In this document: positions 1 to 6,226 of the stretch, piece after piece
Layout: each line of letters opens with the position of its first letter
How positions within the stretch are numbered: position 1 is the stretch's first letter
Origin: an uncultured candidate division Zixibacteria bacterium
GTDB taxonomy: Bacteria > Zixibacteria > MSB-5A5 > GN15 > FEB-12
DNA: 6,226 bases
Direction of reading: 5' to 3'
NCBI GenBank assembly: GCA_913009765.1
Contig: CAJVYT010000269.1
Location: 1-6,226 of the forward strand
Program-made: the position numbers and the translations under genes
The notes under the pieces: generated by a model
What the model was told of the DNA's origin: nothing
The model's input: only the letters and a program-made list of their open reading frames with translations
Database searches by the model: none

Positions 1-70
1 TTTTTTTTTTTTAATGATACGGCGACCACCGAGATCTACACTCTTTCCCTACACGACGCTCTTCCGATCT
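1..70 (+). other. Illumina P5 / TruSeq universal adapter with poly-T lead (assembly contamination)
   Basis: Twelve T residues (1-12) are followed at 13-70 by the full 58-base P5/TruSeq universal adapter, starting AATGATACGGCGACCACCGA and ending CGCTCTTCCGATCT, with no mismatch that I can see. The homopolymer outside it is the reverse complement of the poly-A that appears when a read runs off the end of a short library fragment. This is library sequence carried into the assembly, so genomic sequence begins at about 71. It must not be read as a terminator T-tract or a promoter. Confidence 0.98.
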
Positions 71-175: not shown

Positions 176-1414
176 TTACTTCTTTTCCACTTTCCTAATA
201 AAAAGATATAATCCGATAACCAATAATGTAAAGATAAGTGACGCAACTCCAAGTCCTTTACGACGGAAATAAAATTCATCGATAAGAGAAGCAGAGTTTT
301 TCTTTACCTCTTCGGCTTGTTTCATCCCTTGTTCAGCACTCGGTAAGACAGAATCTAAGTTAAACGAATGCAGTTTAGTGCGTGTATGAATCAATGATTG
401 TTGAACTTCGTTCATAGTAAATTCAACATCAGTGGTAGACATTTCTTTTTCCTTGGCATCATCAAGCAAGGCTTGTGCTTCCTTTTGAGACTGCACCAAT
501 GCCTTTAAAGCATTTGAAATTCCGCCAGCTGTTGCAATACCTTTAGTACCGTCATCAACGGAATGACATTCAACACAAAGAGCCGGTTCTTTAGTACCAA
601 TCCATTTATCTTCCGGTTTTAAAATCTTGTGGTTGGAATGGCAAGTCATACACATAGGGAAATCATTTTCCTCAAACGCCACTTTATGGGGTGAGTTGTT
701 AAACAATTCCGACTCAATTGCATGACAATTACCACACACAGCAATTAAAGAAGCGACTCCCGGAGGAGCAGCACCATGATTACCATGACAGTCATTACAG
801 ACCGGAGCAGAAAGATCACCCTTTTCAAACAAAGCATACCCATGTACTGATTGCTTGTAATCAGCAACAGGGGTAGAATCAAGTCCGTATTTTTTCATCA
901 ATTTATCATTACTATGACATTTTCCACATGTTTTGGTGATATTTAACGGATGAGTACTGGAATGCGGAAGTTTGGCTGTATTGATTTGATGCACTGTGTG
1001 GCAGGAGATACAATTTGCCACATTGGTGTCACCTTTTTTCAATAATTGTTTGCCATGAACCGATGTTTTATATTTATCAAACTGATCGGTAGGCAATGAT
1101 GGATTATGGTCATGCATATACGCCGCATCAGAATGACATCTGGCACAGAATTTTGGAACATCTTTATATGACGGAACCCCGCGGTAGGTCTTTGAGTCAC
1201 GAACATCGTCCATATCATCAAGCGATGCATCACCACCATGACAGTCAACACACCCAAGACCTTTTTGGATATGGATATCTTTAGATATCAAATGTGATGG
1301 ACCGTCAGCATCTTCAAAATCTGAATGACAGGTCAAGCAGTTATTTTCAGCAGCTGAAACCATTACGGCAGAAAATATACAGATCATAAGATATATGAAA
1401 CTTTTTTTATACAT
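176..1414 (-). CDS. Membrane-anchored nonaheme c-type cytochrome of a Rieske/cytochrome b complex
   Basis: Predicted periplasmic electron-transfer subunit that takes electrons from the Rieske protein, in place of cytochrome c1 or f. From the chosen start it has 412 residues: a signal peptide (YKK, a hydrophobic stretch, likely cleavage near VSA/AE, about residue 21), then nine CxxCH heme sites at residues 26, 55, 90, 135, 163, 206, 227, 255 and 280. A helical, coiled-coil-like linker (about 298-380) follows, then one transmembrane helix (387-406) and a basic tail, giving an N-out, C-in anchor. Modules repeat: YKxSVHG lies exactly 20 residues before CxxCHxxH at 135 and at 206, and a looser SPH version precedes 255. 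The upstream SVHG-type and downstream CxxCHxxH histidines are candidate distal heme ligands. It is the last gene of the operon, three bases after the cytochrome b stop. Start: AGGAG abuts the first ATG (1420) but lies six bases from the ATG at 1414, so 1414 is preferred. The fold resembles multiheme cytochrome c3/NapC-like families; the exact family is not certain. Confidence 0.9.
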   Translation of the reverse strand: MYKKSFIYLMICIFSAVMVSAAENNCLTCHSDFEDADGPSHLISKDIHIQKGLGCVDCHGGDASLDDMDDVRDSKTYRGVPSYKDVPKFCARCHSDAAYMHDHNPSLPTDQFDKYKTSVHGKQLLKKGDTNVANCISCHTVHQINTAKLPHSSTHPLNITKTCGKCHSNDKLMKKYGLDSTPVADYKQSVHGYALFEKGDLSAPVCNDCHGNHGAAPPGVASLIAVCGNCHAIESELFNNSPHKVAFEENDFPMCMTCHSNHKILKPEDKWIGTKEPALCVECHSVDDGTKGIATAGGISNALKALVQSQKEAQALLDDAKEKEMSTTDVEFTMNEVQQSLIHTRTKLHSFNLDSVLPSAEQGMKQAEEVKKNSASLIDEFYFRRKGLGVASLIFTLLVIGLYLFIRKVEKK

Positions 1415-1420
1415 TGTCAT

Positions 1421-1425
1421 CTCCT
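1421..1425 (-). promoter_or_regulatory. Ribosome-binding site deciding the cytochrome c start
   Basis: The minus strand reads AGGAGATGACAATG. The AGGAG touches the first ATG (1420-1418), leaving no spacer, but has a six-base spacer to the second ATG (1414-1412). The site overlaps the cytochrome b stop codon (TAG, 1426-1424), so translation of the two genes is probably coupled. Confidence 0.75.
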
Positions 1426-2533
1426 ATTTAACCATATAACCGTAAAAGGTCATGAATATTATAAACGCTAACACAAAATATCCAAATGCCGTAAACAATT
1501 TAGATTTTTGATCAACTGCTGATTTTTTATCTAAAAATGGAACTAATGCCCAAATGAGACCACCAATTGAGAATGCAAATATTCCAACTAATTCCCCTTC
1601 TAAAAAGAGAATGTGAGCCGGAAGCATCTTAAGTGCCTGGAAAGCAAACATAAAATACCATTCAGGACGAATGATCGGAGGAGGCGGAGCGAATGAATCG
1701 GCTTTTATGCCTAAAGGCCAGTGAATGACACCAATACCATCGGGGAAAAATGTTGCTAAAACCGCAATTACATTTAGAACTATTAACCAGACTAATAAAT
1801 CACGTAGAATAAAGTTCGGGAAGAACTTCATATATTTCTTTTCACCGGCAGGCTTGTTTGCCCACTCTATAGGTTCGCTCATACCCTGACGCTGTACAAA
1901 TATCAAATGTGCTGACAATAAAACAGTAAATATTCCCGGAAGAATAGCAACATGCAATCCAAAGAAACGTCCGATAGTTGCTCCTGTGACTTCTTCGCCT
2001 CCTCGCATAATAATCAATAATTGATCACCTATAACCGGAACGGCACCTGCCATGCCGGTTCCCACACGAGTAGCAAAAAATGATAGTTCGTTCCAAGGAA
2101 GTAAATAACCTGAAAATCCAAATAACAGGGCAAGTCCAAATAAACCCATCCCTGACAGCCATGTCATTTCTCTTGGTTTGCGATATGCTTTGGTAAAATA
2201 AACAGTAAACATGTGTAAAAACACAAAGAACACCATTAAATTGGCAGACCACGAATGTATCGCACGTACTAACCATCCAAACGAAACAGTACTGACAATA
2301 AACTGTACCGATTCAAAAGCCGAATCGGCTCCCGGACGATAATACATAAGTAATAAAATTCCTGAGACAACCTGAACTATAAAAAGAAATAAAGAAATTC
2401 CGCCTAAATAGTAAAAACTTGAATGCGAGTGAGTTGGAACTACTTTAGAACCCATGTAATCGACTAAGGCAGAAATTTTAAATCTGCTGTCGACCCAATC
2501 ATACATCTGTGAAGAAAGGTTTTTATCACTCAT
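1424..2533 (-). CDS. Cytochrome b subunit of a quinol-oxidising bc complex (fused b6 + subunit IV type)
   Basis: Integral membrane diheme cytochrome of 369 residues that forms the quinol oxidation (Qo) and reduction (Qi) sites. Seven membrane helices are visible at about 40-64, 92-114, 127-146, 190-213, 244-263, 314-334 and 346-366, matching b6 (four) plus subunit IV (three) joined in one chain. Heme ligands are His93/His107 in helix B (13 residues between) and His194/His209 in helix D (14 between). The longer helix D spacing is the b6f-type pattern rather than the mitochondrial one. The Qo motif PEWY is intact at 290-293. The segment FYYLGG (40-45) aligns with FYCLGG of b6 and has Tyr42 where b6 carries the Cys that binds heme ci; the protein has no cysteine at all. 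Its ATG overlaps the Rieske TGA by one base (TGATG), with AAGGAAGG (2540-2547) six bases upstream. The naming qcrB/petB is ambiguous, so no symbol is given. Confidence 0.96.
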   Translation of the reverse strand: MSDKNLSSQMYDWVDSRFKISALVDYMGSKVVPTHSHSSFYYLGGISLFLFIVQVVSGILLLMYYRPGADSAFESVQFIVSTVSFGWLVRAIHSWSANLMVFFVFLHMFTVYFTKAYRKPREMTWLSGMGLFGLALLFGFSGYLLPWNELSFFATRVGTGMAGAVPVIGDQLLIIMRGGEEVTGATIGRFFGLHVAILPGIFTVLLSAHLIFVQRQGMSEPIEWANKPAGEKKYMKFFPNFILRDLLVWLIVLNVIAVLATFFPDGIGVIHWPLGIKADSFAPPPPIIRPEWYFMFAFQALKMLPAHILFLEGELVGIFAFSIGGLIWALVPFLDKKSAVDQKSKLFTAFGYFVLAFIIFMTFYGYMVK

Positions 2534-2982
2534 CAGCTGCCTTCCTTACTGACAAAGATAGTTTCCCCAACTTCTTTTACTTGAAATTGAAAAAGTGGAC
2601 GAGGTGGTGGACCGGAAATATTGGCTCCATCCATGGTGTAACGTCCGTTATGACATGAACACCATATAATCCCTAAATCGGGACGATGCTGTACAGTACA
2701 ATCAAGATGGGTACAAACAGCACTTAAAGATTTGAGTTCATTTTTATCTGTTAAAAAAATAATTCCCAAAGCCCGACCATATTTAAAATATTTTGCTTTT
2801 TGGGGTTCACTTTCAATATCCGTACGTGAAAATGAAAGTTTCAGCTGTGACAGTTTTGCTTCTGCAAGTTTTGGAGGAGTGATGTATTTAAACATCGGAT
2901 AAAAAATTGCTCCAATAGCCAGTAAAGCAGAACCGCCTAAAGCTGTTTCAAGGAAACCACGACGTGATTTTTCTCCTGACAC
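2533..2982 (-). CDS. Rieske [2Fe-2S] iron-sulfur protein of the bc complex
   Basis: Exported electron carrier of 149 residues that accepts one electron from quinol at the Qo site and hands it to the multiheme cytochrome. A twin-arginine signal-anchor opens the protein (SRRGFLE at 6-12, hydrophobic to about 33), followed by a flexible linker and the Rieske domain. Box I is CTHLDC (90-95) and box II CSCHNGRY (108-115): cluster ligands Cys90, His92, Cys108 and His111, with Cys95 and Cys110 for the disulfide. Box II differs from the usual CPCHGSxY: the Ser that hydrogen-bonds the cluster sulfur in high-potential proteins is Gly113, while Tyr115 is kept. Box I has Asp instead of Gly before its second Cys. 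These changes fit a lower-potential, menaquinol-linked Rieske protein (inference). The start is GTG with GAGGAG at 2988-2993, five bases away. First gene of the operon. Confidence 0.95.
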   Translation of the reverse strand: MSGEKSRRGFLETALGGSALLAIGAIFYPMFKYITPPKLAEAKLSQLKLSFSRTDIESEPQKAKYFKYGRALGIIFLTDKNELKSLSAVCTHLDCTVQHRPDLGIIWCSCHNGRYTMDGANISGPPPRPLFQFQVKEVGETIFVSKEGS

Positions 2983-3079: not shown

Positions 3080-3463
3080 TTATAAAACTGCTACCGCATC
3101 TATCTCAACTTTTACATCTTTAGGTAAACGGCTCACTTCAACGGTGGCACGTGCCGGAGGATTTTCAAGAAAATAAGATGCGTATACTTCATTTACCGTA
3201 GCAAAATCATTCATATCAGCAAGATAAATAGTCGTTTTCACTACATCAGCATATTCGGCAGAACCTGCTTTGAGAACTGCACCAAGGTTTTCCATCACTT
3301 GCTTACATTGTTCAGCAGCAGTATTTCCGACTATTTCCATAGTGTGTGGATCAAGTGGAATATTTCCGGAAACATATATTGTCTCTGAGCAGGTTACTTT
3401 CACAGCCTGGGAATACGGTCCGATTGCATGAGGAGCTAAATCGGTTAACACAATTGTTTTCAT
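3080..3463 (-). CDS. ridA: RidA family enamine/imine deaminase
   Basis: Cytoplasmic trimeric enzyme of the RidA/YjgF/UK114 family, which hydrolyses reactive 2-aminoacrylate and related enamines/imines made by PLP enzymes to 2-oxoacids and ammonia. The 127-residue product is of standard length. Visible signatures are IGPYSQAV (14-21), SGNIPLDP (32-39), PPARATVEV (102-110) and VEIDAVAVL at the C-terminus. Counting from the ATG at 3463, the key residues fall at Tyr17, Arg105 and Glu120, the same numbers as in E. coli RidA, where Arg105 binds the substrate carboxylate. That agreement supports this start over the longer TTG frame from 3484, whose first codons are the ribosome-binding site itself. 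It stands alone between gaps of about 100 bases, and a link to the bc operon is not evident. Confidence 0.95.
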   Translation of the reverse strand: MKTIVLTDLAPHAIGPYSQAVKVTCSETIYVSGNIPLDPHTMEIVGNTAAEQCKQVMENLGAVLKAGSAEYADVVKTTIYLADMNDFATVNEVYASYFLENPPARATVEVSRLPKDVKVEIDAVAVL

Positions 3464-3466
3464 CAT

Positions 3467-3473
3467 ACCTCCT
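3467..3473 (-). promoter_or_regulatory. Strong ribosome-binding site deciding the ridA start
   Basis: AGGAGGT on the minus strand is followed directly by ATGATG. The second ATG (3463-3461) has the better spacing, and the protein numbering of the catalytic residues agrees with it. The longer frame from TTG at 3484 would have to translate through this site. Confidence 0.8.
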
Positions 3474-3495
3474 AAGTATGACAATAATCAAAGGC

Positions 3496-3564: not shown

Positions 3565-4548
3565 TTAGGTAACTTCAAGACCGTTTGGACCCATAAGTGC
3601 AACAAATGCTTTCATTGCTTCATCATCGTATGCCCCTTTAATTGAGAACATAACTTTTAAGGCAGGAAATGTATCTTTTGCTCGTTGATAAACACGTTCG
3701 GTAGTCATAGCATCAAATGAATCGGCAATGGCAACTATTTTTGAAAAAATATGCATTTCATTTAACGTTATCCCATTCGGATATCCCGACCGGTCACCTC
3801 TTTCATGATGCTGCAAAATAGGGTACATTGATGCTTCGGAGATTTCATTTGTCTCCCGCATAAGATCATCGCCCCATTTGGGATGTTTTTTCATAATTTC
3901 AAACTCAATAGAATTTAAAGCAGAACGTTTATGTAAAATTCTTTCAGAGACTTTTGATTTACCTACATCATGAAGCAATGCACCGACACCAAGTTCAAAT
4001 AAAAAATCCTTGTCATGGAATCCCATCTGTTGTGCAAGAGCTATTGCAAATGTACAGACATTTACCGAATGGGTGTAGGTATAATAATCAAAAGAGGAAA
4101 TTTTCATCAGCGAATGGAATGCTTCTTGACCCTTTAAAATATAATCAATCGTATTTCCAACTAAATGTTTGGAACGTTTGATATTCTCACCATACGTTGG
4201 TCTGCTTAAAACATCTTTTACTAAACCGGTAGATGTTTCATATAAAATACCTGCTTTTTTAATTTCAGGTATCTGAGGATCGTGAATTATTTTATCTAAA
4301 TTCTTTTCAATATACAGTTGATATTTGTGTTTACTTTCTGAGCTGATATATACTTTTTCAACTGAATTATCCAACAGTTTCTGACGGGTTCGGTCGGTAA
4401 AGGGAAGGTCGGCTGAACGATATAATACTAAATTTCTATTTATATTGAGATATAAATCAAAATTTAAGACAGAATCAATTCTGATAGAATCAAGCTGTAT
4501 TGGAATAAATTTTTGATCTACTTTTGTATCTGTCGAAATAATGCTCAT
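3565..4548 (-). CDS. HD-GYP domain protein, probable cyclic-di-GMP phosphodiesterase
   Basis: Cytoplasmic signalling enzyme of 327 residues expected to hydrolyse c-di-GMP. Residues about 1-90 form an N-terminal module of the kind that often precedes HD-GYP domains (key stretch FDLYLNINRNLVLYRS, then a VEKVYIS strand); its ligand is unknown. The HD-GYP domain runs from about 145 to 320. Metal-site residues are all present: His160 (THSVNV), His193-Asp194 (LLHDVGKSKV), His222 (KKHP), His247-His248 (QHHER) and Asp276 (IADSFDAMT). The GYP signature is RSGYPNG (253-259). The usual HHExWDGSGYP reads HHERGDRSGYP here, with W to G and G to R changes. The Glu that builds a trinuclear site in some members is a Tyr, as in most binuclear enzymes. 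No membrane helix or receiver domain is visible. The ATG at 4548 has only a weak purine-rich upstream sequence, but no other Met exists before residue 148. It lies downstream of a terminator, so it should have its own promoter. Confidence 0.93.
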   Translation of the reverse strand: MSIISTDTKVDQKFIPIQLDSIRIDSVLNFDLYLNINRNLVLYRSADLPFTDRTRQKLLDNSVEKVYISSESKHKYQLYIEKNLDKIIHDPQIPEIKKAGILYETSTGLVKDVLSRPTYGENIKRSKHLVGNTIDYILKGQEAFHSLMKISSFDYYTYTHSVNVCTFAIALAQQMGFHDKDFLFELGVGALLHDVGKSKVSERILHKRSALNSIEFEIMKKHPKWGDDLMRETNEISEASMYPILQHHERGDRSGYPNGITLNEMHIFSKIVAIADSFDAMTTERVYQRAKDTFPALKVMFSIKGAYDDEAMKAFVALMGPNGLEVT

Positions 4549-4716: not shown

Positions 4717-5340
4717 CTATTGTGTGTTGTAATTTTTTATTGTACTCATAACGGAATTCAATGAAGTTGTTATATTCGTAAGTATTTTCGAGTATTTTTT
4801 CAGCAGTTCAGAGTACTGCCAACGCATTTGAAATGCTTTTTCAGGAAAATCAAAAAGTTCAAGTAGTATTGTTTTATAGATTTCATCAATATATTGGACT
4901 ACATAATACGGATAATCAGGAATATTTACATCCTGCACTTCACCTTTGCTAATTCGTTCGCAATAGACTTCAATCTTTTCAAGCATAACAGTTCCAAAAC
5001 ACCACGGAGTCATTACAATACCTAAATTGGCTCCATCGGTGTAAAAACGTCTGATATTTTTCATCAGAAGGTCAATAATGACTGATTTGGCTCTATAAAA
5101 GGCAATTGATTCATTAAATTCAGATGTAGTCGTCATCAGTTTTTCTGAGAGTTTTGCTCTTTCTAAATTGGCATTTTCATACGCTAATTCAAGAAAACGG
5201 TAAAAATCATCAAAATAGACCTTACTGTTTTCAGACAGTGACATTATATAATAGCCGTATTCATCATTGCGAATCTTTGGATCGTTGGTGCTTTCTAATC
5301 TTTCTTGTGAAAATCCTCTTTGATATCTGCCGTCTAACAT
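4717..5340 (-). CDS. Unrecognised helical protein, own transcription unit
   Basis: I do not recognise this 207-residue protein. It has no signal peptide and no clear membrane helix, and is rich in Tyr, Phe and charged residues, with long amphipathic helices (about 40-100 and 145-200). Distinctive spots are RFYTDGANLGIVMTPWCFG (98-116), which looks like a conserved core, and a second Cys at 127 (EVYCERI). It is probably cytoplasmic and mostly alpha-helical; no enzyme motif or DNA-binding motif is evident. Start choice: the frame extends to an ATG at 5367 with a poor upstream sequence, whereas the ATG at 5340 has AGGAG five bases upstream, so 5340 is preferred (nine residues shorter). It is monocistronic by context: an extended -10 promoter near 5442-5450 in front, a strong terminator behind. 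Confidence 0.8.
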   Translation of the reverse strand: MLDGRYQRGFSQERLESTNDPKIRNDEYGYYIMSLSENSKVYFDDFYRFLELAYENANLERAKLSEKLMTTTSEFNESIAFYRAKSVIIDLLMKNIRRFYTDGANLGIVMTPWCFGTVMLEKIEVYCERISKGEVQDVNIPDYPYYVVQYIDEIYKTILLELFDFPEKAFQMRWQYSELLKKYSKILTNITTSLNSVMSTIKNYNTQ

Positions 5341-5345
5341 AAAGT

Positions 5346-5350
5346 CTCCT
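5346..5350 (-). promoter_or_regulatory. Ribosome-binding site deciding the start of the unknown gene
   Basis: AGGAG on the minus strand with a five-base spacer (ACTTT) to the ATG at 5340-5338. The longer frame from 5367 would run through it and has no comparable site of its own. Confidence 0.75.
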
Positions 5351-5441
5351 ACTTCTTTTATTGTCATCTGCTTAGCTATACTGCAACCAATTTGCCAAAC
5401 ATGAAAATAATCGTTCTCTTTTGAAACAAGATAGTTATCTC

Positions 5442-5961: not shown

Positions 5962-6150
5962 CTATTTACATTTAGTTTGCTCATGTTCGGGGTTTTTTAG
6001 TATTTTAGCAGTATTGATTACAGTGCAAGTCGGACACGAACAAACCCCCGCACGGAAATTACCCTCTATTGCTATTGTCGGACAGTTTTCAATACAGGCA
6101 CCACACGCCTGACAGGCATCAAGATTAACGACCCAAGATTTTTTTGTTTC
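5962..6150 (-). CDS. Ferredoxin-like 4Fe-4S protein, 5' end missing (cut by adapter)
   Basis: The last 62 residues of an iron-sulfur protein are genomic. A [4Fe-4S] motif CQACGACIENCP is present (Cys 13, 16, 19 and 23 of the fragment), followed by an unusual second cysteine group, CSCPTC (37-42), and a final Cys61 in TKCK. That second group does not match the usual second CxxCxxCxxxCP of a bacterial 2[4Fe-4S] ferredoxin, so it may bind a different metal or form disulfides. The open frame continues to an ATG at 6186, but everything upstream of 6150 is Illumina adapter: the apparent start MLLEFRRVLFRS is the well-known translation of that adapter. The true N-terminus, start and upstream genes lie off the contig. 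Redox partner and pathway cannot be inferred. Confidence 0.85.
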   Translation of the reverse strand, partial: ETKKSWVVNLDACQACGACIENCPTIAIEGNFRAGVCSCPTCTVINTAKILKNPEHEQTKCK

Positions 6151-6226
6151 AGATCGGAAGAGCACACGTCTGAACTCCAGTAACACTGATATATCTCGTA
6201 TGCCGTCTTCTGCTTGAAAAAAAAAA
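6151..6226 (+). other. Illumina TruSeq index adapter with poly-A tail (assembly contamination)
   Basis: From 6151 the sequence is the TruSeq indexed adapter (AGATCGGAAGAGCACACGTC onward), with barcode ACTGAT at 6185-6190 (the index 25 form, followed by AT) and the P7 end finishing GCTTG at 6215, or 6216 counting its last base, then poly-A to 6226. One mismatch is visible: A at 6182 where the adapter has C (CCAGTAAC for CCAGTCAC). This is read-through sequence, not genome; its reverse complement supplies the false start of the neighbouring Fe-S reading frame. Confidence 0.98.

What the first reader, a model, noticed from the sequence alone, without database searches (positions are those of the whole stretch)
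176..2982. Rieske/cytochrome b operon whose third subunit is a nonaheme cytochrome
In place of a monoheme c1 or f, this operon ends in a tail-anchored nine-heme protein. Nine hemes could carry electrons from the Qo site well away from the membrane, to periplasmic reductases or an outer-membrane conduit. Multiheme c partners of bc complexes are known in several anaerobic lineages, but this nine-heme, C-terminally anchored form with a long helical linker may be a distinct subtype.
Basis: partly seen in the sequence, partly recalled or inferred. Interest (0 to 1): 0.7.

Follow-up and report, generated by a model that had tools for sequence, protein, structure and literature searches.

The report
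Nine-heme subunit of respiratory complex III
This DNA encodes a version of respiratory complex III, found in many little-known bacterial groups, in which the usual one-heme output protein is replaced by a membrane-anchored protein with nine hemes that probably acts as an electron wire into the space outside the inner membrane.

Summary
In detail: minus-strand operon Rieske (2982-2533), cytochrome b (2533-1424), then a 414-aa protein with nine CXXCH motifs, a signal-like N-terminus and a C-terminal membrane helix (1420-176). It is not a one-off. Of 121 distinct homologues collected (window included), 119 sit next to cytochrome b; 110 carry nine motifs, 8 carry eleven. Record titles name about a dozen groups. 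In three genomes of two phyla cytochrome b and the nonaheme protein are one natural polypeptide, the best evidence that they form one complex. The "helical linker" is conserved and carries an invariant histidine (H351), so it is probably part of the heme fold. Cytochrome b is unsplit and lacks the b6f heme-cn cysteine; the Rieske lacks the potential-raising serine, as expected for menaquinol. In 12 of 80 related loci a NuoEFG-less complex I cluster follows. Most likely: a menaquinol:multiheme-cytochrome oxidoreductase running a Q cycle and delivering electrons to a nine-heme wire; the final acceptor is unknown. Multiheme Rieske/cyt b complexes are known (anammox, Geobacter), so this is a new variant of a known kind. 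My searches found no description of this nonaheme type, but the library is partial.

The parts
2533..2982 (-). Rieske [2Fe-2S] protein, 149 aa, GTG start, twin-arginine-like N-terminus (SRRGFL) and one N-terminal hydrophobic segment
   Evidence: ORF; PF00355 31.1 bits (cut-off 20.3); N-terminus; that SRRxFL is a Tat motif is recalled
2698..2715 (-). first cluster-binding motif CTHLDC
   Evidence: translation; same pattern in the Rieske ORFs
2638..2661 (-). second cluster-binding motif CSCHNGRY: Gly where high-potential Rieske proteins have Ser, Tyr kept
   Evidence: Ser absent at this place in 135 of 135 Rieske ORFs (Gly 134, Ala 1; some genes counted more than once)
1424..2533 (-). cytochrome b, 369 aa, unsplit, seven hydrophobic helices, four heme His (13 and 14 residues between them), Tyr where b6 has the heme-cn Cys
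   Evidence: the role of the b6 Cys is recalled
1655..1666 (-). PEWY motif of the quinol-oxidation (Qo) site
   Evidence: translation; PEWY in 133 of 145 NHC-labelled cytochrome b ORFs
176..1420 (-). nonaheme c-type cytochrome (NHC), 414 aa, third subunit
1349..1420 (-). N-terminal signal sequence of NHC
   Evidence: hydrophobic segment 3-27; cleavage not tested
1325..1339 (-). heme 1 motif CLTCH
   Evidence: positions; invariant in A3
1238..1252 (-). heme 2 motif CVDCH
   Evidence: invariant in A3
1133..1147 (-). heme 3 motif CARCH
   Evidence: invariant in A3
998..1012 (-). heme 4 motif CISCH
   Evidence: invariant in A3
914..928 (-). heme 5 motif CGKCH
   Evidence: invariant in A3; one homologue outside A3, L037, has CAKFH
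785..799 (-). heme 6 motif CNDCH
   Evidence: invariant in A3
722..736 (-). heme 7 motif CGNCH
   Evidence: invariant in A3
638..652 (-). heme 8 motif CMTCH
   Evidence: invariant in A3
563..577 (-). heme 9 motif CVECH
   Evidence: invariant in A3
263..541 (-). C-terminal helical domain (helices 294-324, 330-352 and the first part of 355-413)
   Evidence: AlphaFold2 model, mean pLDDT 93.9
368..370 (-). His351, invariant, in the helical domain; proposed distal heme ligand
   Evidence: 93 of 93 rows; the ligand role is inferred
182..262 (-). C-terminal membrane anchor of NHC (residues 387-413)
   Evidence: hydropathy peak 2.55; helix in model

Best explanation
A complex-III-type menaquinol oxidoreductase made of Rieske, seven-helix cytochrome b and a nine-heme, tail-anchored cytochrome (NHC). 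Menaquinol is oxidised at the Qo site of cytochrome b; one electron goes down the two b hemes to the Qi site and the other to the low-potential Rieske cluster, so a Q cycle moves protons (inferred from the conserved His ligands, PEWY and Rieske motifs). The Rieske then reduces a heme of NHC instead of c1 or f, and the nine hemes carry electrons away from the membrane to soluble or envelope cytochromes (inferred). The C-terminal helices anchor NHC and probably give a heme ligand (H351). Shown here: gene set, conservation, pairing, natural cyt b-NHC fusions. Inferred: electron path, quinone type, heme ligation. Unknown: the final acceptor.
For: Pairing: 119 of 121 distinct NHC ORFs are next to cytochrome b; the two misses are cut by contig ends. 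Order Rieske-cyt b-NHC in 68 of 81 (80 loci plus window), NHC first in 3, fused in 1. Natural fusions of 852, 855 and 832 aa with 9 CXXCH each, in two phyla. Cytochrome b: 13 residues between helix B ligands in 142 of 143 and 14 between helix D ligands in 144 of 144 NHC-labelled rows with both His; PEWY 133 of 145. Rieske: Ser replaced in 135 of 135; a Ser mutant in yeast drops 130 mV (PMC12954380, passages), so a low, menaquinol-type potential is expected. NHC: seven further invariant His, His/Met at 245 in 91 of 93, Met102 in 91 and Met175 in 92 of 93: enough ligands for nine six-coordinate hemes. One cyt b clade.
Against: No biochemistry. The three-subunit complex was not modelled; the fusion model is only moderate (pLDDT 74.6, pTM 0.61) and I had no coordinates, so heme positions and Rieske contact are untested. 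Neighbouring genes differ between groups and name no single acceptor. L204 has NHC and Rieske but no cytochrome b within the 6.2 kb fetched. One Rieske/cyt b pair whose cyt b falls in the NHC clade has no NHC within 14 kb (L197). The window's own genome is not held.
Confidence: 0.75

Rival explanations
1. NHC is itself an enzyme of the HAO / octaheme nitrite reductase / NrfA kind: one heme is an open active site and the complex couples menaquinol oxidation directly to reduction of a nitrogen or sulfur compound.
Confidence: 0.12
2. The complex mostly runs backwards or as an electron inlet: NHC takes electrons from outside donors and cytochrome b reduces quinone at the cost of membrane potential.
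For: Multiheme wires are bidirectional in principle (recalled). In 12 of 80 loci complex I genes follow NHC, which could use that quinol for reverse electron flow.
Against: 17 of 19 genomes have a COX1-family gene, giving an ordinary downhill sink. Nothing in the window points to an external donor. A low-potential menaquinol-type Rieske fits quinol oxidation.
Confidence: 0.08
3. NHC is co-expressed with, but not a subunit of, the Rieske/cyt b complex (a separate periplasmic hub).
For: In three loci NHC precedes Rieske-cyt b; in L030 a 553-aa membrane protein lies between cyt b and NHC; in L204 NHC and Rieske stand without cyt b.
Against: Natural cyt b-NHC fusions; tail anchor; near-total pairing; no c1 or f gene lies beside the pair in the window.
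Confidence: 0.05

Closest known systems
Anammox Rieske/cytochrome b complexes of Kuenenia (Kuste4569-4574, Kustd1480-1485)
   Same: Rieske plus cytochrome b with a large membrane-anchored multiheme c subunit in place of cytochrome f, menaquinone organism (PMC12954380, passages)
   Different: There hexa- or octaheme, b6-like cytochrome b with separate subunit IV, heme cN, NAD(P) oxidoreductase subunits, and Rieske with the Ser kept (+303 and +335 mV). Here nine hemes, unsplit cytochrome b, no heme-cN Cys, Ser replaced, no NAD(P) oxidoreductase gene in the window. Homology of NHC to Kustd1485/Kuste4573 not tested.
Geobacter ext cluster (ExtM-ExtN-ExtO-ExtP, GSU2930-2937)
   Same: Rieske and cytochrome b genes clustered with multiheme cytochromes (PMC2825233 and PMC5877670, passages); window cytochrome b matches the ExtP model over residues 31-220 (217 bits)
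   Different: ExtP cut-off (290 bits) not reached; ExtP is 23 kDa with a separate membrane protein ExtQ; the cytochromes have 10, 12, 5 and 2 or 4 hemes in separate proteins; a porin-like ExtI is present
Cytochrome bc1 and b6f complexes
   Same: Rieske, cytochrome b with four His ligands, PEWY, Q-cycle parts
   Different: No c1 or cytochrome f; nine hemes; cytochrome b of seven helices in one chain; no b6f heme-cn Cys
Rieske/cyt b next to NapM and eHao in Caldithrix abyssi
   Same: Rieske/cyt b without a monoheme c gene nearby, with multiheme acceptors proposed (PMC5317091, passages)
   Different: Part of a nap cluster with an octaheme HAO; the paper finds only that pair in the type strain. 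The operon here is a different pair with its own NHC.
HAO / octaheme nitrite reductase / NrfA superfamily
   Same: Model of NHC resembles them and profile match 99.7; octaheme members also stand beside cytochrome b genes
   Different: Nine motifs, not eight or five; tail-anchored; not listed for PF13447/PF02335; relation not certain

Membership tests
Rieske/cytochrome b (bc-type) complexes | Rieske protein with both Cys/His cluster motifs | tested here: met
   PF00355 over cut-off; CTHLDC and CSCHNGRY
Rieske/cytochrome b (bc-type) complexes | Cytochrome b with four heme His and a PxWY Qo motif | tested here: met
   PF00033 165.5 bits; His and PEWY conserved
Rieske/cytochrome b (bc-type) complexes | Stable complex with quinol:cytochrome oxidoreductase activity | not testable with these tools
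   needs purification; only gene fusion as indirect evidence
Cytochrome bc1 | Third subunit is a c1 (mono- or diheme) | tested here: not met
   nine CXXCH, class III-type Pfam matches, no c1 family at E 0.001
Cytochrome b6f | Cys binding heme cn in cytochrome b6 | tested here: not met
   Tyr at that place (alignment); Cys in 2 of 145 NHC-labelled rows
Cytochrome b6f | Cytochrome b split into b6 and subunit IV | tested here: not met
   one 369-aa ORF
Anammox-type Rieske/cyt b with NAD(P) oxidoreductase | NAD(P) oxidoreductase subunit in the cluster | tested here: not met
   none in the window; downstream of NHC the window ends
Geobacter Ext complex | Cytochrome b is ExtP | tested here: not met
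   217.4 bits against cut-off 290
Geobacter Ext complex | c subunit homologous to ExtM or ExtN | not tested
   those sequences were not fetched
HAO / ONR / NrfA superfamily | Shared fold of the heme core and C-terminal helices | tested here: inconclusive
HAO / ONR / NrfA superfamily | Recognised by PF13447 or PF02335 | tested here: not met
   not listed at E 0.001
DmsE/MtrA decaheme cytochromes | Score over TIGR03508 cut-off | tested here: not met
   54.4 bits against 192.2

The most novel reading that the evidence does not exclude
A separate class of complex III: a menaquinol:nonaheme oxidoreductase, with an HAO-derived but purely electron-conducting nine-heme subunit, that took the place of c1/f complexes across a dozen mostly uncultured groups, is the only Rieske/cyt b complex in some of them, and in Zixibacteria-like organisms is laid out with an NuoEFG-less complex I as one quinone-coupled chain ending in a periplasmic wire.
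Probability: 0.4. Interest if true: 0.75.

Novelty: new variant of a known kind. Interest (0 to 1): 0.55.

Why it matters
Complex III is one of the central coupling sites of respiration, and its output subunit is usually taught as a one-heme c1 or f. A conserved nine-heme output subunit in many groups known mostly from metagenome-assembled genomes means that these lineages may couple the Q cycle directly to a multiheme wire, with no small soluble cytochrome c step. The natural cyt b-NHC fusions give single-polypeptide targets for structure work, and the replaced Rieske serine plus the His/Met positions give predictions about potentials that can be measured.

Tried and rejected
Own genome: none held. 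Solved-structure sequence search of NHC: no match at E 0.001. Plasmid search: only distant bc-type cytochrome b; four records used as outgroups. My first NHC profile had taken in multiheme-b561 fusions; its '0-heme' matches are b561 membrane domains where tested and were not used; a clean profile from A2 was used afterwards. Mixed alignments A4 and A5 for the fusion placed NHC rows wrongly and were dropped. No model coordinates reached the Python box, so heme ligation could not be measured. Foldseek gave nothing below E 0.25; families absent are not excluded. NrfA-family search of 19 genomes: weak matches in 10, over cut-off in 5, so no ammonifying acceptor is argued. Promoter/terminator scan: promoters 10 found against 12.0 in shuffles, terminators 4 against 2.2; nothing built on it. 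Idea that NHC mostly pairs with another enzyme: rejected, 119 of 121 beside cyt b; the clear exception is L204.

Literature searches: (CC-licensed PMC only). 'nonaheme'+'Rieske' and 'nine heme'+'Rieske'+'cytochrome b' gave 0 papers. Papers seen as passages: PMC5317091, PMC2825233, PMC12954380, PMC5877670, PMC10439189, PMC6896113; others in listings only. PMC3839093 (Dibrova 2013) is not held; from recall, reviews of bc evolution mention multiheme partners, so prior notice of this type in subscription papers is possible.
Full report
WHAT IS THERE. The window carries three genes in one tight minus-strand operon: Rieske (2982-2533), cytochrome b (2533-1424, overlapping the Rieske stop by one base) and a 414-residue cytochrome (1420-176, three bases after the cytochrome b stop). 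Pfam identifies Rieske and cytochrome b over its cut-offs; the NCBIfam matches of these two are all below their cut-offs. The cytochrome hits only general multiheme families over cut-off and falls far short of named ones such as DmsE (54 of 192 bits). It has nine CXXCH motifs, a signal-like N-terminus and a C-terminal hydrophobic helix. I call it NHC.

HOW COMMON. A protein search scored 8000 candidates and 6028 passed E 0.001, a capped count. Their record titles name Zixiibacteriota, FCB group, Calditrichota, KSB1, Neomarinimicrobiota, Deltaproteobacteria, Aminicenantes and other Acidobacteria, Eisenbacteria, Latescibacterota, Bacteroidetes/Ignavibacteria, Gemmatimonadota, Krumholzibacteriia and Rokubacteria. 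In phylum samples the A2 profile matched at E 1e-80 in 76 of 132 genomes (phylum of L001), 41 of 199 (of L037; this count includes partial matches to long fused multiheme proteins), 7 of 198 (of L034), 39 of 95 (of L078) and 18 of 198 (of L067), and at E 1e-60 in 37 of 199 (of L032). Only the 52 loci fetched from these, and eight more, were checked for neighbours.

PAIRING. Over window, L001-L080 and L111-L162, taking ORFs over 300 bits to the A2 profile and merging identical mature sequences, there are 121 distinct NHC ORFs; loci L081-L110 were left out because they cut the gene. 119 have a cytochrome b on the same strand within 2.5 kb. The two others are cut by contig ends: L036 starts at base 6, and L056 stands behind the 553-aa membrane protein that in L030 lies between cytochrome b and NHC. 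Heme motifs: 9 in 110, 11 in 8 (L033, L053, L067, L070 and four from the phylum of L067), 8 in 1 (L037, one motif reads CAKFH), 7 and 6 in two with broken frames. Gene order Rieske-b-NHC in 68 of 81, NHC-Rieske-b in 3, b-NHC without a called Rieske in 7, fused in 1, no cyt b in 2. Of those 7, five have cyt b cut at the contig start, L046 shows Rieske motifs upstream without a long frame, and L048 shows none. Eight further places with long open frames were fetched (one, L209, is the L054 place again): seven have cytochrome b beside or fused to NHC, and L204 has NHC followed by Rieske but no cytochrome b in 6.2 kb. L204 is the one clear exception I saw.

FUSION. In L032 and L113 (two genomes of one phylum) cytochrome b and NHC are one ORF of 852 and 855 aa with nine motifs at identical places, joined by about 100 residues. 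A third fusion, 832 aa, also with nine motifs, is in L206, from the phylum sample of L037. Natural fusion in two phyla is the strongest sequence evidence for a physical complex. Other long frames were not all checked. A model of the L032 fusion with 28 aligned rows is moderate (pLDDT 74.6, pTM 0.61); I use it only for secondary structure, which fits seven membrane helices in the cytochrome b part and further long helices in the joint.

CYTOCHROME B AND RIESKE. In 145 NHC-labelled cytochrome b ORFs (with repeats of some genes) 13 residues separate the helix B ligands in 142 of 143 rows with both His, and 14 the helix D ligands in 144 of 144; PEWY in 133; the b6 heme-cn Cys position is Tyr in 133 and Cys in 2. 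The window's chain has seven hydrophobic helices. In 135 Rieske ORFs (with repeats, and with a few from pairs without NHC) the second motif is C-x-C-H-N-G-x-Y/F or close to it: Gly in 134 and Ala in 1 at the Ser place. PMC12954380 (passages) reports that losing this Ser costs 130 mV in yeast. So a low-potential, menaquinol-type Rieske is expected; this is inference.

TREE. FastTree on 214 N-terminal columns, 141 distinct tips from 175 ORFs plus two b6 sequences (short or identical rows dropped): all 113 NHC-labelled tips fall on one side together with two others, L087 and L105, support 0.80. L087 is a real exception: in L197 this Rieske/cyt b pair has no NHC within the 14 kb fetched. L105 is divergent (254 bits) and its place is weak. 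Five divergent cases from the phylum of L034 (L143-L147) keep nine motifs beside cytochrome b; in L146 and L147 the cytochrome b appears as two ORFs, the first scoring 238-244 bits to ExtP, a possible link to the Geobacter type.

A SISTER ARRANGEMENT. All 11 of the 11 longer octaheme loci have a cytochrome b gene directly beside them on the same strand (265-331 bits to my profile, against 309-624 bits for cyt b in most NHC loci); a Rieske match was seen in only 1 of 11, as the stretches end soon after cytochrome b; of the 16 shorter octaheme loci only 1 has cytochrome b. In L052 such a set (Rieske, cyt b, 8-heme PF13447 protein) stands on the same contig as an NHC operon. So two kinds of multiheme-partnered Rieske/cyt b exist side by side; the octaheme one resembles what is reported for Caldithrix (PMC5317091) and anammox.

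SURROUNDINGS. Upstream of the operon the window has RidA (3080-3484), an HD-domain protein (3565-4548) and an unknown protein (4717-5367), in the same order as in L001, L002 and L004. Downstream the window ends in adapter sequence. In L001 the next genes are NuoA, B, C, D, H, I, J, K, L, M and a further LMN-type gene at the end of the stretch, with D followed directly by H, so no NuoEFG between them. Two or more complex I genes follow NHC in 12 of 80 loci, some cut short by contig ends. In 23 of 80 loci a cytochrome b561-type membrane domain, alone or fused to many hemes, lies in the stretch. 40 of the 63 loci of at least 9 kb hold two or more multiheme ORFs, NHC included. In 4 of 19 genomes the NHC-linked cytochrome b is the only PF00033 match (G002, G003, G004, G011; these may be incomplete genomes); 17 of 19 have a COX1-family gene, G004 and G009 do not. 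So the chain may end in an oxidase in some organisms and in multiheme partners in others.

MECHANISM. Most likely a Q-cycle menaquinol oxidase whose high-potential branch goes Rieske to NHC. Positions where Met is or may be a ligand suggest one or two higher-potential hemes fit to take the electron from the Rieske, and His/His hemes for onward transfer. The path, potentials and acceptor are inferred.

NOVELTY. Multiheme Rieske/cyt b complexes are known from anammox bacteria (PMC12954380) and Geobacter (PMC2825233, PMC5877670), and PMC5317091 describes a Rieske/cyt b pair without c1 in Caldithrix (all seen as passages). None of these passages describes a nonaheme type, and searches found no paper; the library excludes most subscription papers. 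Verdict: new variant of a known kind, widespread and well conserved.

Noticed in passing
window 1-70 and 6151-6226: Untrimmed Illumina-type adapter sequence (recognised from memory) at both ends with poly-T/poly-A; the N-terminal part of the ORF at 5962-6225 is adapter-encoded.
   Followed up: no
L001 11510-21236 and 11 other loci: Complex I genes (in L001 NuoABCD-HIJKLM and one more LMN-type gene, no NuoEFG between D and H) downstream of NHC in the window's close relatives.
   Followed up: partly
L052 12689-15931; L167, L170-L172, L175, L182, L185-L189: Cytochrome b directly beside octaheme PF13447 (HAO-family) genes: a second multiheme-partnered Rieske/cyt b type, in L052 on the same contig as an NHC operon.
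   Followed up: partly
L030 8313-9974, L029 3610-5283 and 9 other loci: A ~553-aa membrane protein (DUF2339-like end) near NHC, in L030 between cytochrome b and NHC: possible extra subunit.
   Followed up: partly
L050 11352-14156, L017 1934-4717, L023 8525-11398, L065 12066-14984: 19-heme proteins with a b561-type membrane domain near the NHC operon; in L050 one profile match (117 bits) runs through a stretch holding nine motifs in both proteins, hinting at a shared heme module.
   Followed up: partly
L197 5324-6846: Rieske/cyt b pair whose cyt b falls in the NHC clade but with no NHC nearby.
   Followed up: partly
L204 1163-4130: NHC followed by Rieske but no cytochrome b in the 6.2 kb fetched; ORFs beyond it look like a membrane protein and a response regulator.
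   Followed up: partly
L146, L147: Nine-heme NHC beside an apparently split, ExtP-like cytochrome b: possible intermediate between the b6-type and unsplit forms.
   Followed up: partly
window 5962-6150: Partial ferredoxin-type protein (CxxCxxC motifs, weak HgcB-like score, below cut-off).
   Followed up: no
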